NCBI GenBank assembly: GCA_963556255.1
Contig: OY744616.1
Location: forward strand, 2,312,831-2,376,830
DNA length: 64,000 nucleotides
Origin: Allolobophora icterica
Taxonomy: Eukaryota; Annelida; Clitellata; Crassiclitellata; Lumbricidae
Direction of reading: 5' to 3'
The position numbers and the translations under genes are program-made. This document shows positions 21,022 through 40,613 of the stretch, piece after piece. Under the pieces are notes generated by a model. The model had not been told where the DNA came from. It saw only the letters and a program-made list of their open reading frames with translations, and ran no database searches. Numbering within the stretch: the first letter of the stretch is position 1; the number at the start of each line of letters is the position of its first letter.

Positions 21022-21201
21022 AGTAGGGGTTAAGTAGGCGTTTCAAATCACACTCGCGAGGTGGCGTTAAGTAGGCGTTTCAACGCAGTCGCTAGGTGGA
21101 GTTCTGAAAGCTTAAAAAACCCTTACAATGAGTGAATCTGAAACACCAACCTGTTGGCGCTCTAAGGGCCTGATAGAGGAAAGGAACGGTCATTCAGGGT
21201 A
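21022..21201 (+). repeat. Left terminal inverted repeat of the Polinton
   Basis: 180 bases matching the reverse complement of 40432-40613 with few differences. It contains two tandem copies of a roughly 37-base unit, GTTAAGTAGGCGTTTCAA then CTCGCGAGGTGG or the variant CGCTAGGTGG. A diverged third version lies just inside at about 21210-21275. Confidence 0.93.
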
Positions 21202-22000
21202 GATAGGAGTGCATTGTCTGGCGCATTCGCCAGGTGGTGTTCTCAAAGCTTTTAAAAATCCTTTAAATGAGTGATGGCTTATAATGGCATAATTCATATT
21301 ACGGTGCAAAATCTAGACATATCTACGAGACGCTTTTCAATTTATTAGAGCGCATTTATGGGGTACTCAAAACAACAAAGATACACACACCTACAGACAC
21401 AGGCACCTGCAGACACACATACAGACACACATACCCGGAACTTGCCTATACTCTGTTTATAGAACAAATTAAATTTTAAGTTACAGATTCGGATAGAGGG
21501 TGAAAAATCCGGAATTTTCCGTACCTACACGGCATACTTCGCTTCATAAATAAAGAAACTACAGTGTTGGCCCACTAAAATCTTCAGCTGTGAAGATTTA
21601 AGTGGACCACGGCGGGAATCTTAACGACTGAGGAACGTGGCCACCTAGCGAGTGCGGCGTTAATACGATAGATATAACAAACCGAAATATGGATGTTTTT
21701 CAACACTCGCACAGTAGCTACATTGGTAAGAGCGTTAGGCGTGATTGTTACGATCCCAGTTCGCCTCCCGAAGGCGGCATGCAATACTTTATTTATTTAA
21801 AATCTTGGTCTATCACGGTTGGTATCCTACACTGGGACCTTAAATTGCGTGGTTCCGATCCATACGGGCAGCGGTGATGAAGATTCTCATCCGATCAATG
21901 ATCAAGGTCGAGACCATACAGTCGCTATATATATAAAAATGTACGTTTGCATGTTGCCATTTCAGGTTACACGATGAATTAATTGATGCAACCATCATTT
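21202..22000. other. Left subterminal region of the Polinton, no gene seen
   Basis: No recognised coding sequence. CA-rich simple sequence lies at 21385-21435. A possible second tRNA-like promoter (box A near 21717, box B-like GATCCCAGTTCGCC near 21750) could mark another SINE, at low confidence. Confidence 0.5.
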
Positions 22001-22102
22001 GTGGGGCGCGGTGGCTCAGTGGTAAGTTCGGCGACTTGTGACCGGAGGGTTGCAGATTCGAATCCCACTCTAGCCGTTACGTACGGACCTTGGGCAAGTC
22101 AC
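22001..22102 (+). mobile_element. tRNA-derived SINE (family 1), truncated
   Basis: Near-identical to 13199-13300, with box A TGGCTCAGTGGTAAG and box B GATTCGAATCCC. It stops abruptly where the 124-bp tandem array begins. Confidence 0.85.
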
Positions 22103-23055
22103 CCCGAAAGAAATTTTTCGTTGTCAAAAATTCATCAGACCAAAATCAATATTTCCACCGGAAACGTGCAGAAAAAGCAATTTTGTGATGTGTAAAATTT
22201 TTTCACCCAACCCCAAAAACTTTTACCCCGAAAGAAATTTTTCATTCTCAAAAAATTCATCAGGCCAAAATCAATATTTCCACCGGAAACGTGCAGAAAA
22301 AGCAATTTTGTGATGTGTAAAATTTTTTCACCCAACCCCAAAAACTTACCCCGAAAGAAAATTTTCATTGTCAAAAATTCATCAGGCCAAAATCAATATT
22401 TCCACCTGAAACGTGCAGAAAAATCGTTTTTACGCTGTGTGAAATTTTTCACCCATCCCCAAAAACACCCCAAAAGAAATTTTTCATTGTCAAAAATTCA
22501 TCAGGCCAAAATCAATATTTACACCTGAAACGTGCAGAAAAATCGTTTCTACGCTGTGTAAAATTTTTTCACCCATCCCCAAAAACTTTTACCCCGAAAC
22601 AAATTTTTCATTGTCAAAAATTCATCAGGCCAAAATCAATATTTACACCTGAAACGTGCAGAAAAATCGTTTCTACGCTGTGTAAAATTTTTTCAACCAT
22701 CCCCAAAAACTTTTACCCCGAAACAAATTTTTCATTGTCAAAAATTCATCAGGCCAAGATCAATATTTACACCTGAAACGTGCAGAAAAATCGTTTCTAC
22801 GCTGTGTGAAATTTTTCACCCATCCCCAAAAACTTTTACCCCGAAACAAATTTTTCATTGTCAAAAATTCATCAGGCCAAAATCAATATTTACACCTGAA
22901 ACGTGCAGAAAAATCGTTTTTACGCTGTGTGAAATTTTTCACCCAACCCCAAAAACTTTTACCCCGAAAGAAATTTTTCATTGTCAAAAATTCATCACGT
23001 CAAAATCAATATTTCGAACGAAATCGTGCAGTGAACGCAAATCTACGCTGAATAA
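22103..23055. repeat. Tandem array of about eight 124-bp units
   Basis: Each unit starts near ACCCCGAAAGAAATTTTTCA and includes TTCATCAGGCCAAAATCAAT and ACGTGCAGAAAAA. Units start near 22101, 22223, 22349, 22466, 22590, 22714, 22838 and 22962. The last one is the most diverged. It lies between the SINE and the first Polinton gene. Confidence 0.95.
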
Positions 23056-23144
23056 AATTTTCAGCCGGACTTTGAAATTTCAAAAACGTGACATTTTTCG
23101 TCGTTTTCTGAATACCATTTTTCGGTCACGTTTTTGGACTTGTG

Positions 23145-23275
23145 AATTATGGAAATCGGGGAACTATGGAAATCGGGGAAATACGGAAATCTGGAACCAC
23201 GGAAATCGGGGAACTGCGGAAATCGGGGAACTACGGAAATCGGGGAACTGGGGAAATCGTACGGCGGTGGCGCGG
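23145..23275. repeat. 16-17-bp minisatellite (GGAAATCGGGGAACTAC)
   Basis: About eight imperfect copies directly before the 3' end of the first minus-strand Polinton gene. Open frames across it are repeat artefacts. Confidence 0.9.
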
Positions 23276-23387
23276 TGAACTGCGGAAACTTGAGCACATA
23301 AAAAATTATAAATCCGCTAATCGTATGGTGGTGGCGCGGTCGGAACAACAACAGATTCAACGTTCCAACCACCTAGGATGAAAATTT

Positions 23388-39100: not shown

Positions 39101-39625
39101 GGCCCACTCAAAGCATCGGTTATCTTCATTCTTAACATTAATAACCGTGCGAGGGGGGATGTACTTTGGTGTGGGAAAGTAGCTCTTTCCTCGGAAAGGC
39201 TTATATCTTGCAACACCGAGGTCTAGCCCCACGACCCGCTTCAATCTCCACCCCGATCCCTCATTGGTGTACTCTTCGAGGAGGCTTAGTACTTCGGCCT
39301 TGGCCTTTCGTATAGCCCCTTGGATTTTACCCGCATTGGTAACTGGTTCTGCTTTGCTTCGAAAGTAGACCGTCTTGGTAATAGTACCCGGGGTAGCGTT
39401 GTCATCATACACATTATCAACAGTCGGAGCCAGCTTTTCCAACTCAACTGTCAACACTTGCGAGTATTTCAGACCGTCTTGTTTCAACAGCTCTTCGTTG
39501 AGTTGCGCCTCAATGTTCTGCTCCATTGCACTCAAGAAAGCCAACGCATCTCCTTCCAGCCTGTGATTAAGCGGCACTTCTGCGCGGAAGTCTCTCAGAT
39601 GCTGATTGGCTAGCTCTCTGTGCAC
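36137..39625 (-). pseudogene. POLB: Protein-primed type DNA polymerase B, with in-frame TAG
   Basis: Replicative polymerase of the element. The ATG at 39625 opens a 1010-codon frame with a Cys/His-rich N-terminal finger (CRRCLHIFC), exonuclease motifs I (YADFEAL, about 343-350), II (FHNLRGYDSHL) and III (YLRTDVLLLADVF), an HNH-like insertion (CHICGEALEEDRVRDHCH), and polymerase motifs A (YLDANNLYGWAM), B (KLANNAVFGKTMEN) and C (YTDTDSLLF). Directly after motif C a TAG stop (36593-36595) ends the frame; the same frame continues for 151 codons (36137-36592) with typical C-terminal sequence such as DLHHELYKECLFEREEM. No other breaks are visible. The protein could be made only with stop readthrough. 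Confidence 0.93.
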
Positions 39626-39879
39626 TAGAAAGGGTGGTGGTCACCTCTATCCTTCTTATTTAGGAGTGGGTCGAATTGTGCCAGAAGGGCCTTACGTTTT
39701 GCCCCTCTATGCTTACGCGCTGGAGGAATTGGCCTTGGAAGCAGTGGCTGTAGTAAGCGCCTTTTGACTGCATCTGGGATTGGTTCGTCTAAGATATTTT
39801 GTAGAACAGCTCGAAGAGCTGGGGGACCGGTAAACTCACCCAACAATTGTTCTATTTTTTCATTCGTAGACAATGCCAT
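39625..39879 (-). CDS. Small Polinton hypothetical upstream of polymerase
   Basis: 84 residues from ATG at 39879, MALSTNEKIEQLLGEF. It is basic and proline-rich in the C-terminal half (LPRPIPPARKHRGAKRKA). Its stop codon overlaps the polymerase ATG, so it is probably translated from the same transcript or is the 5' part of the polymerase transcript. No known family. It could be a terminal-protein-like or DNA-binding peptide, but that is speculative. Confidence 0.45.
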   Translation of the reverse strand: MALSTNEKIEQLLGEFTGPPALRAVLQNILDEPIPDAVKRRLLQPLLPRPIPPARKHRGAKRKALLAQFDPLLNKKDRGDHHPF

Positions 39880-40040
39880 AGTTATAAATTATTTTATACT
39901 ACTGTGGCAAACTTTTCTCTAATACAATAATTATATCATTTGTTCAAAATGAAATTTTGTTTACTGATATTCGATTGACGCTTGCTCATCTGTATTACCT
40001 CAATACAATAACTATATCATTTGTTCAAATGATAATTTTT

Positions 40041-40316
40041 TTATTCTACTGATATATTTGATAGTCGCTTCCATTCTTTATTAAATTCACGGACTAGCCC
40101 ACCTCGTCGAGCTCTGAAATATTTAGCGAAATAACCACACTTCATACACTCACCTAAGTGGTTTTTGATTCCCCTTCCACATTTGGCCCATGGTCTTGTC
40201 TCGTAGCCATTTCGCAGCTGTGCTAAATGTTTGAAACAATATTCCCCAATGCATCTACGAGGGCAAAGATTTTCTTTACCTATCATAAGCCATTTGCAAA
40301 AGTTTTGCCCTAACAT
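40041..40316 (-). CDS. Small cysteine-rich Polinton protein
   Basis: 91 residues from ATG at 40316. It carries clustered Cys/His residues (CPRRCIGEYCFKH, then CGRGIKNHLGECMKCGYF), consistent with one or two zinc-binding knuckles, and a basic C-terminus (RARRGGLVREFNKEWKR). A nucleic-acid-binding role is likely but unproved. It is the first gene inside the right terminal repeat, transcribed inward toward the polymerase. An about 60-base segment upstream of the polymerase start is repeated imperfectly (39920-39975 and 40000-40060). Confidence 0.65.
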   Translation of the reverse strand: MLGQNFCKWLMIGKENLCPRRCIGEYCFKHLAQLRNGYETRPWAKCGRGIKNHLGECMKCGYFAKYFRARRGGLVREFNKEWKRLSNISVE

Positions 40317-40431
40317 TATGTTTCATGTATACCACAACCTATTCATTTATTTAAATTGAAAAATGACCCGGTTTGGGCCGGCCTGGTGGGAGGTTCTCGG
40401 CCGGCAGCAAACGTTGGTAATCTCATTTCTT

Positions 40432-40613
40432 TACCCTGAATGACCATTCCATTCCCTCTGGCAGGCCCTTGAGGGCGCCAACAGGTTGGTGTTTCAGATT
40501 CACTCATTGTAAGGGTTTTTTAAGCTTTCAGAACTCCACCTAGCGACTGCGTTGAAACGCCTACTTAACGCCACCTCGCGAGTGTGATTTGAAACGCCTA
40601 CTTAACCCCTACT
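40432..40613 (-). repeat. Right terminal inverted repeat of the Polinton
   Basis: Inverse of 21022-21201, ending CCTACTTAACCCCTACT at 40613 and followed by GCCCC. It includes the two subterminal 37-base units in inverse order. 40614-40984 beyond it holds no recognised gene. Confidence 0.93.

What the first reader, a model, noticed from the sequence alone, without database searches (positions are those of the whole stretch)
21022..40613. Near-complete Polinton with full virus-like morphogenesis set
Seen directly: matched 180-bp inverted termini, short flanking duplication, and genes for polymerase, integrase, ATPase, protease, major capsid, penton, two small core-like proteins, phospholipase and fibre. 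Known: Polintons are inferred to form virions. The set here lets one reconstruct how a capsid-bearing ancestor infected this lineage.
Basis: partly seen in the sequence, partly recalled or inferred. Interest (0 to 1): 0.85.

Follow-up and report, generated by a model that had tools for sequence, protein, structure and literature searches.

The report
One of many capsid-bearing Polintons
The stretch is a real virus-like Polinton, damaged itself but one of some 800 capsid-gene places in this genome; the capsid genes checked in other copies are mostly unbroken and strongly conserved, while the fibre tip that would grip cells varies, which suggests that the family spreads by making infectious particles.

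Summary
Confirmed: 21022-40613 is a Polinton with 180-bp inverted ends (175/180 identical), a 5-bp duplication, PolB, integrase, ATPase, capsid protein (MCP), penton, PLA2-like protein, fibre and an adenain-like protease. This copy is dead: a PolB stop (1 of 19 copies), a 1.8-kb insert in the ATPase, a LINE-like fragment. Of 20 MCPs sampled by it, 19 are open, with pN/pS 0.10. Other genes give 0.08-0.30, wrong frames above 1. The fibre has a conserved base, phage-like shaft repeats and a discoidin-fold head. In the same elements heads differ far more than capsids (74-86% against 96-98%), by mostly amino-acid-changing substitutions, and heads and capsids have different nearest relatives. Best reading: the family spread through capsid-dependent particles that re-enter cells, with a diversifying, exchanged receptor-binding head. 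No particle was seen, no copy was tested for all genes, the host is unidentified.

The parts
21017..21021 (.). left copy of the 5-bp target-site duplication GCCCC
21022..21201 (+). left terminal inverted repeat
   Evidence: 175 of 180 identical to the right end, 2 gaps; repeated in the genome
22101..23014 (.). 7.4 tandem copies of a 124-bp unit inside the left end
23388..23999 (-). open frame, 203 aa, unassigned, hydrophobic stretch
   Evidence: no Pfam or PHROGs match
24000..24554 (-). open frame, 184 aa, unassigned
   Evidence: no Pfam or PHROGs match
24555..26366 (-). fibre: conserved N-terminus, phage-fibre-like shaft repeats, C-terminal head at 24558-25037 with discoidin fold
26357..27091 (-). 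adenain-like cysteine protease (C-terminal part 26360-26731 used in searches)
   Evidence: pN/pS 0.16 among 30 copies
26728..27318 (-). pX-like small protein (label not tested by homology)
   Evidence: no PHROGs match; pN/pS 0.30
27278..28591 (-). major capsid protein, double jelly roll
   Evidence: PF21738 1.5e-54; 810 signature matches in the genome
28714..29181 (-). pVI-like small basic protein (label not tested by homology)
   Evidence: no PHROGs match; pN/pS 0.22
29195..30001 (-). penton protein
   Evidence: AlphaFold2 pLDDT 84.9; Foldseek best matches mavirus penton and adenovirus penton base
29997..31127 (-). open frame, 376 aa, unassigned
   Evidence: no Pfam match, one weak PHROGs match of unknown function
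31141..31602 (-). open frame that holds the C-terminal part of the split packaging ATPase and runs into the insert
   Evidence: reading frame and junction; no Pfam match on its own; assignment by recalled motif
31411..33220 (.). inserted non-autonomous repeat with inverted ends, TTAA on both sides, splitting the ATPase
   Evidence: 37 of 40 scored places span the 1791-base query at 91-100% identity, this copy included
33018..33710 (-). open frame that holds the N-terminal part of the packaging ATPase (Walker motif) and runs into the insert at its 3' side
   Evidence: Pox_A32 3.6e-7
33749..34546 (-). LINE-like (non-LTR retrotransposon) coding fragment with a short (TGTAT)n tail at 33681-33711
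   Evidence: open frame, tandem repeat; family recalled from motifs, no Pfam or NCBIfam support
34541..35086 (+). DUF5679 plus phospholipase A2-like protein
   Evidence: pN/pS 0.08 in 20 copies
35137..36150 (+). rve integrase
   Evidence: 119 scored relatives in the genome, 118 without a stop
36137..36592 (-). PolB, piece after the in-frame stop
   Evidence: pN/pS 0.11 in 20 copies
36593..39640 (-). PolB, piece before the in-frame stop (DNA_pol_B_2)
   Evidence: stop in 1 of 19 copies covering that codon
40434..40613 (-). right terminal inverted repeat
   Evidence: repeated in the genome
40614..40618 (.). right copy of the 5-bp target-site duplication GCCCC

Best explanation
A damaged member of a large Polinton (Maverick) family that was recently active. 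The family copies itself with its own PolB, packages DNA with its ATPase into capsids of double-jelly-roll MCP and penton, matures with an adenain-like protease, attaches through a fibre whose discoidin-fold head contacts the cell, may breach membranes with its PLA2-like protein, and integrates by an rve integrase that duplicates 5 bp. Shown here: genes, ends, duplication, copy number, in-frame constraint on replication, integration and capsid genes, and the contrast between a constant capsid and a variable fibre head. Inferred: that particles form, leave cells and re-enter cells including the germ line, and that heads diversify and are exchanged because they meet changing receptors or defences.
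For: 810 MCP-signature places, reversed control 0. Of 20 MCPs taken by that signature 19 are open; pN/pS 0.10 in 171 pairs, frame +1 control 2.23. Genes not used to choose loci: penton 0.20, pVI-like 0.22, protease 0.16, fibre N-part 0.17, pX-like 0.30, PLA2 0.08, PolB pieces 0.08 and 0.11; wrong frames 1.07-2.64. Fibre N-terminus present in 30 of 30 MCP loci. Head: discoidin fold; 148 of 150 scored heads without a stop; MCP 96-98% with head 74-86% in the 15 other elements where both were listed; variable columns at codon positions 1+2: 3 are 35:11 in six heads, 50:95 in 19 MCPs; two elements sharing a 98% head have MCPs 96.5% and 94.5% identical to this one. A vertebrate study drew virion formation and re-infection from purifying selection on capsid genes (PMC8097293, passages).
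Against: No particle, transcript or new insertion was seen. No copy was tested for being open in all genes, and part of the genes are broken: 8 of 30 pentons carry a net frame-shifting gap and 1 a stop, 5 of 29 pVI-like a stop, 2 of 30 proteases a gap, at least 4 of 30 fibre N-parts a stop, 4 of 30 MCPs a stop, 3 of 20 PolB end pieces a gap. Loci L015-L064 were chosen by similarity to this copy's protein, and the sampled MCPs by exact signature matches, which favours intact, constrained copies. Pooled pN/pS of seven heads is 1.00, compatible with relaxed constraint; excess in the middle segment has P 0.024, 0.039 and 0.097 and the segment was chosen after seeing the data.
Confidence: 0.72

Rival explanations
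1. Intracellular transposon: copies spread inside nuclei, and capsid genes are kept because a capsid is an obligatory intermediate of copying, with no exit from the cell.
For: Hundreds of copies in one genome; constraint on PolB and integrase is as strong as on capsid genes; no particle evidence.
Against: Entry parts are kept as well: fibre N-part 0.17, PLA2 0.08, 148 of 150 heads without a stop, and the outermost part is the one that varies.
Confidence: 0.17
2. Passive burst: the low pN/pS only reflects ancestry from a few recently constrained master elements, and the copies themselves are now neutral relics.
For: Some copies are near-identical (L040, L041, L043, L044 differ by 3-4 of 1311 bases; in the five closest pairs, 0-5 differences, the ratio is 0.72); this copy is dead.
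Against: Synonymous divergence among MCPs is about 10% with 1% non-synonymous, so constraint acted over much of the copies' history; pairs with under 10 differences in the sample still give 0.06 (6 pairs).
Confidence: 0.08
3. For the fibre head alone: variation comes from gene conversion among copies, relaxed constraint, or a targeted mutator such as a diversity-generating retroelement, not from positive selection.
For: Pooled pN/pS of seven heads is 1.00, compatible with relaxation; heads and capsids have different histories, so exchange does occur.
Against: 148 of 150 scored heads have no stop; both head ends are nearly invariant and changes cluster in the middle; only 2 of 46 variable columns hold three bases and adenine is in 30 of 46, a weak bias, unlike a diversity-generating retroelement as recalled.
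Confidence: 0.3
4. Host-useful elements: copies are kept by the host, for example as a defence against other viruses, as proposed for virophages and PLVs in protists.
For: Large numbers of open genes; such a role is proposed for protist PLVs (abstract start of PMC12220804, listing).
Against: Constraint covers the element's own replication and entry genes, dispersed over at least 16 contigs, which selfish spread explains without a host benefit; no host-specific evidence.
Confidence: 0.03

Closest known systems
Vertebrate Mavericks/Polintons (PMC8097293; passages)
   Same: Protein-primed PolB, rve integrase, ATPase, capsid genes and protease between terminal inverted repeats, strong purifying selection, few intact among many degraded copies.
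   Different: There at most 38 intact and 287 total copies per genome and 6-bp duplications; here 810 MCP-signature places, 5-bp duplications in the two copies checked, plus a phage-like fibre.
Mavericks annotated in the hard clam Mercenaria mercenaria (PMC8905726; passages)
   Same: High load: 7091 annotations, 31.4 Mb, 1.69% of that genome, so abundance in a mollusc is not new.
   Different: The passages seen report repeat annotation, not intact capsid genes, selection or fibres; host of this window is unidentified.
Adintoviruses (definition in PMC11071296; passages)
   Same: PolB, rve integrase, hexon, penton, adenain, packaging ATPase, possible lipase-type and coiled-coil surface proteins.
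   Different: OTU domain and integrase chromodomain not detected, hexon reference comparison not possible, so not filed as an adintovirus.
Polinton-like viruses of protists with phage-like fibres (PMC12220804; passages)
   Same: Modular phage-like fibres with cell-binding domains, one case with discoidin domains.
   Different: Protist viruses; here a compact fibre of about 600-750 aa in a Polinton with rve integrase, with heads that vary against a constant capsid inside one genome.
Adenovirus and mavirus capsid vertex
   Same: Penton fold and the layout of anchored shaft plus receptor-binding head.
   Different: Shaft repeats resemble phage fibres and the head is discoidin-like, not the adenovirus knob (recalled).

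Membership tests
Polinton/Maverick | family B DNA polymerase of the viral/organellar type | tested here: met
   DNA_pol_B_2 1.2e-22; protein priming is recalled, not tested
Polinton/Maverick | retrovirus-like (rve) integrase | tested here: met
   rve 4e-9, above the Pfam cut-off
Polinton/Maverick | double-jelly-roll major capsid protein and penton | tested here: met
   PF21738 1.5e-54; penton fold
Polinton/Maverick | packaging ATPase and adenain-like protease | tested here: met
   Pox_A32 3.6e-7 on the N-part; protease only weakly, about 1e-3, with unrelated beta-lactamases from 6e-3 on
Polinton/Maverick | terminal inverted repeats with a short target-site duplication | tested here: met
   180-bp ends and 5-bp duplication here, 5 bp also at the C13 copy
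Vertebrate Maverick set of PMC8097293 | 6-bp target-site duplication | tested here: not met
   5 bp in 2 of 2 copies checked; a feature of that vertebrate set, so it is not filed there
Adintovirus (definition in PMC11071296) | PolB with N-terminal OTU-like domain | tested here: inconclusive
   no Pfam hit to an OTU family in the PolB piece at E <= 0.1
Adintovirus (definition in PMC11071296) | rve integrase with C-terminal chromodomain | tested here: inconclusive
   rve found, no chromodomain hit at E <= 0.1
Adintovirus (definition in PMC11071296) | hexon reciprocally recognisable by BLASTp to reference adintoviruses | not testable with these tools
   named references not held; two viral-contig scans with the MCP confirmed no relative

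The most novel reading that the evidence does not exclude
Inside one genome, a recently spreading Polinton population keeps its capsid almost constant while the discoidin-like head of its fibre diversifies under positive selection and is exchanged between copies: a genomic library of receptor-binding heads, and a strong sequence sign that these elements live by extracellular re-infection.
Probability: 0.5. Interest if true: 0.8.

Novelty: new member of a known kind. Interest (0 to 1): 0.62.

Why it matters
That Polintons form virions is inferred, not seen (start of the abstract of PMC8097293 as listed: particles have not been observed). A genome with 810 MCP-signature places of one clade, with 19 of 20 sampled capsid genes open and under constraint, is a place to look for particles. 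Constraint on capsids alone leaves an intracellular route open; a fibre that is conserved at its base and variable at its head is hard to explain without contact with cell surfaces, much as selection on env separates re-infecting from transposing endogenous retroviruses (an argument made in PMC8097293, passages).

Tried and rejected
Viral contigs: two scans with the MCP confirmed no relative. Single-sequence PDB searches gave no useful relative for MCP, ATPase C-part, integrase, fibre and PLA2. NCBIfam gave only IS481 and IS3 below their cut-offs for the integrase and nothing for three other frames. Host: not identified; the only named MCP relatives in the list are from the scallop Ylistrum balloti at 52% identity. 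A diversity-generating retroelement as cause of head variation was considered and not supported. The full-length fibre model is poor (mean pLDDT 42); only its head was used. Set aside for wrong strand or frame: (minus-strand loci not turned), the 'MCP_frame+1' row (in fact in frame); the pX row was out of frame (1.07) and serves only as a control. L033 was left out of MCP counts for its length; L085 (broken) was left out of the ratios; L092 (gapped) was left out of the column counts.
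Full report
WHAT IS THERE. The window lies at C19:2312831-2376830 of a 1.118-Gb, 328-contig genome. The element runs exactly from 21022 to 40613. Its ends are inverted repeats: 180 aligned positions, 175 identical, 2 gaps, the first 139 bases identical (148 nt at 98%). Outside them stands the 5-bp duplication GCCCC. A second copy on C13, whose ends lie 17.56 kb apart, also has a 5-bp duplication, CCATT. Both ends recur: 422 first-look candidates for the left 301 bases and 1428 for the right, 40 scored each. Two of the 40 left-end places are right ends and were dropped; of the other 38, 21 pair with one of 40 listed right ends, 9.6-23.1 kb away in the right orientation.

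GENES. Pfam names PolB (DNA_pol_B_2), rve integrase, a Pox_A32-type ATPase and a DUF5679 plus PLA2-like protein and a double-jelly-roll capsid protein. The penton was modelled from 40 sequences (pLDDT 84.9); its best structural matches are mavirus penton (2.5e-8) and adenovirus penton base, with one chlorovirus capsid chain among 34 matches at E <= 0.001 (superposition is poor, rmsd about 10 A, so this rests on Foldseek scores and the consistency of the hits). The protease's best solved matches are two chains called Protease at about 1e-3, then ASFV S273R at 0.0045 and adenain at 0.0047, followed by beta-lactamases from 0.006 on, so the evidence is weak; the histidine, aspartate and cysteine positions line up in the printed alignment (catalytic role recalled). 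Open frames 23388-23999, 24000-24554 and 29997-31127 remain unassigned.

WHAT BROKE THIS COPY. PolB has an in-frame stop; of 19 copies covering that codon one, this one, has it. The ATPase is split by an insert with inverted ends next to TTAA on both sides. The insert is itself an abundant family: 37 of 40 scored places span the 1791-base query (one from base 3) at 91-100% identity, this copy included; of two other copies read, one has TTAA on both sides and one on a single side. A LINE-like fragment lies between the ATPase and PLA2 genes. In seven other elements the MCP-to-integrase distance is 4.9-5.3 kb, here 7.86 kb, which fits these two insertions.

HOW MANY COPIES. A 35-nt MCP signature with up to 2 mismatches occurs 810 times (423 forward, 387 reverse); its reversed control 0 times. 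At about 17 kb each this would be some 14 Mb, about 1.2% of the genome (inference; many places may be partial). The MCP protein search had 1976 first-look candidates, 96 scored, all full length at 97-100% identity, 92 without a stop. The integrase had 5353 candidates, 119 scored, all at 95-100% over at least 336 of 337 residues, 118 without a stop. Scored lists are capped and ranked by similarity.

SELECTION. Pairwise Nei-Gojobori proportions, no tree. For MCP I took every fifth of the first 100 listed signature matches (contigs C1 and C2, all exact): 19 of 20 open over 437 codons; among these 19, pS 0.102, pN 0.0104, ratio 0.10; frame +1 control 2.23. In 30 loci chosen by MCP similarity, neighbouring genes gave penton 0.20, pVI-like 0.22, protease part 0.16, fibre N-part 0.17 and pX-like 0.30, with wrong frames 1.22 and 1.57; MCP there gave 0.11 in 29 copies. 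In 20 loci chosen by integrase: PLA2 0.08, integrase 0.13, PolB piece after the stop 0.11 and before it 0.08 (19 copies); wrong frames 1.78 and 2.64. Against a picture of intact elements: 8 of 30 pentons have a net frame-shifting gap and 1 a stop, 5 of 29 near-full pVI-like frames a stop, 2 of 30 proteases a one-base gap, 4 of 30 MCPs a stop, 3 of 20 PolB end pieces a gap. No copy was examined for all genes.

FIBRE. The N-terminus MPVDKFG was found downstream of the MCP in 30 of 30 loci; the first part of the shaft comes in two variants; stops break it in 4 of 30 and 3 more look shifted. Shaft repeats match phage head-decoration and tail-fibre families weakly (1.6e-4 to 0.008), and 258 proteins at E <= 0.001 among 7996 scored, many longer than this fibre and some with phage-fibre domains. 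The head, modelled at pLDDT of about 56-86 inside a poor whole model, matches mostly discoidin, factor V/VIII C2 and CBM32 domains among the 50 shown of 60 matches at E <= 0.001; four of eight aligned relatives, not this copy, hit F5_F8_type_C by sequence. Heads in the genome: 1417 candidates, 150 scored; 3 at 98% or more (this copy included), 17 at 86-90%, 110 at 76-79%, 20 at 72-75%; 148 without a stop. Leaving out this copy, 11 of 95 best MCPs and 4 of 19 sampled MCPs have a listed head: MCP 96-98%, head 74-86%. At DNA level 86% heads are 94% identical. In seven heads the pooled ratio is 1.00. Between three head types the middle segment has 24:2, 17:1 and 22:3 non-synonymous to synonymous changes (one-sided P 0.024, 0.039, 0.097; segment chosen after seeing the data); for the whole head P is 0.048, 0.44 and 0.69. 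Variable columns at codon positions 1+2 against 3 are 35:11 in six heads and 50:95 in 19 MCPs (Fisher 1e-6, relatedness ignored).

EXCHANGE OF HEADS. The two elements whose heads are 98% identical to this one carry MCPs 96.5% (with 15 gapped positions) and 94.5% identical to this MCP; the second is closest (98.4%) to a sampled MCP whose head is not among the 150. The MCP closest to this one among 50 held (98.7%) likewise has no listed head. Absence from the list can also mean a lost or unscored head. The pattern is the one expected if heads move between capsid backgrounds; two cases only.

MECHANISM. Shown: genes, ends, copies, constraint, head variation. Inferred from known families: protein-primed replication, packaging, protease maturation, fibre attachment, PLA2-assisted entry, integration. 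Conserved entry parts with a variable tip make re-infection the most economical route; intracellular transposition through an obligatory capsid is the main rival.

COMPARISON. PMC8097293 (passages) reports vertebrate Mavericks at up to 287 per genome with at most 38 intact, 6-bp duplications and strong purifying selection. PMC8905726 (passages) reports 7091 Maverick annotations in a clam, so high load is not new. PMC12220804 (passages) reports phage-like fibres in protist PLVs, discoidin domains included. PMC11071296 (passages) defines adintoviruses; two criteria were inconclusive and one untestable, so the element is filed as a Polinton only. I also opened PMC10294476 and PMC2836005 (passages) and PMC11071308 (no match to my terms). 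In my paper searches (listings, open-licence library only) I saw no account of fibre-head diversification against a constant capsid within one genome; most subscription papers are not held there.

LIMITS.

Noticed in passing
window 20771-20971: Just outside the left end lies an isolated PolB fragment (80% identical DNA to this element's PolB; residues 645-683 at 95%), part of a sequence repeated many times in the genome.
   Followed up: partly
window 31411-33220: The insert in the ATPase resembles a piggyBac-type non-autonomous element (CCC...GGG ends beside TTAA; type recalled) with at least 37 near-full copies at 91-100% identity, so it too was recently active.
   Followed up: partly
window 22101-23014 and 13197-13298: A 124-bp unit is repeated 7.4 times inside the left end; a 102-nt piece 8 kb outside the element is 92% identical to element sequence next to that array (21999-22100).
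   Followed up: no
proteins P0006, P0245, P0124: Relatives of MCP (70%), penton (65%) and fibre (32%) all have a longest contig of 15,213 bases from one source and occur in 18, 20 and 12 contigs, perhaps one related virus-like element or free virus seen in several data sets.
   Followed up: no
window 36593-39640, PolB residues 441-478: A Recombination endonuclease VII-like zinc motif just below the Pfam cut-off (23.3 against 23.6 bits) precedes the polymerase domain.
   Followed up: no
L021 and L022 (C11:5779901 and C11:5786582): Two MCP copies 6.7 kb apart on opposite strands are identical over the MCP, including the same stop, as if by a local inverted duplication.
   Followed up: no
window 8013-8095: ARAGORN predicts a tRNA-Thr that no Rfam family supports at gathering threshold; perhaps a tRNA-like repeat or a false call.
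   Followed up: no
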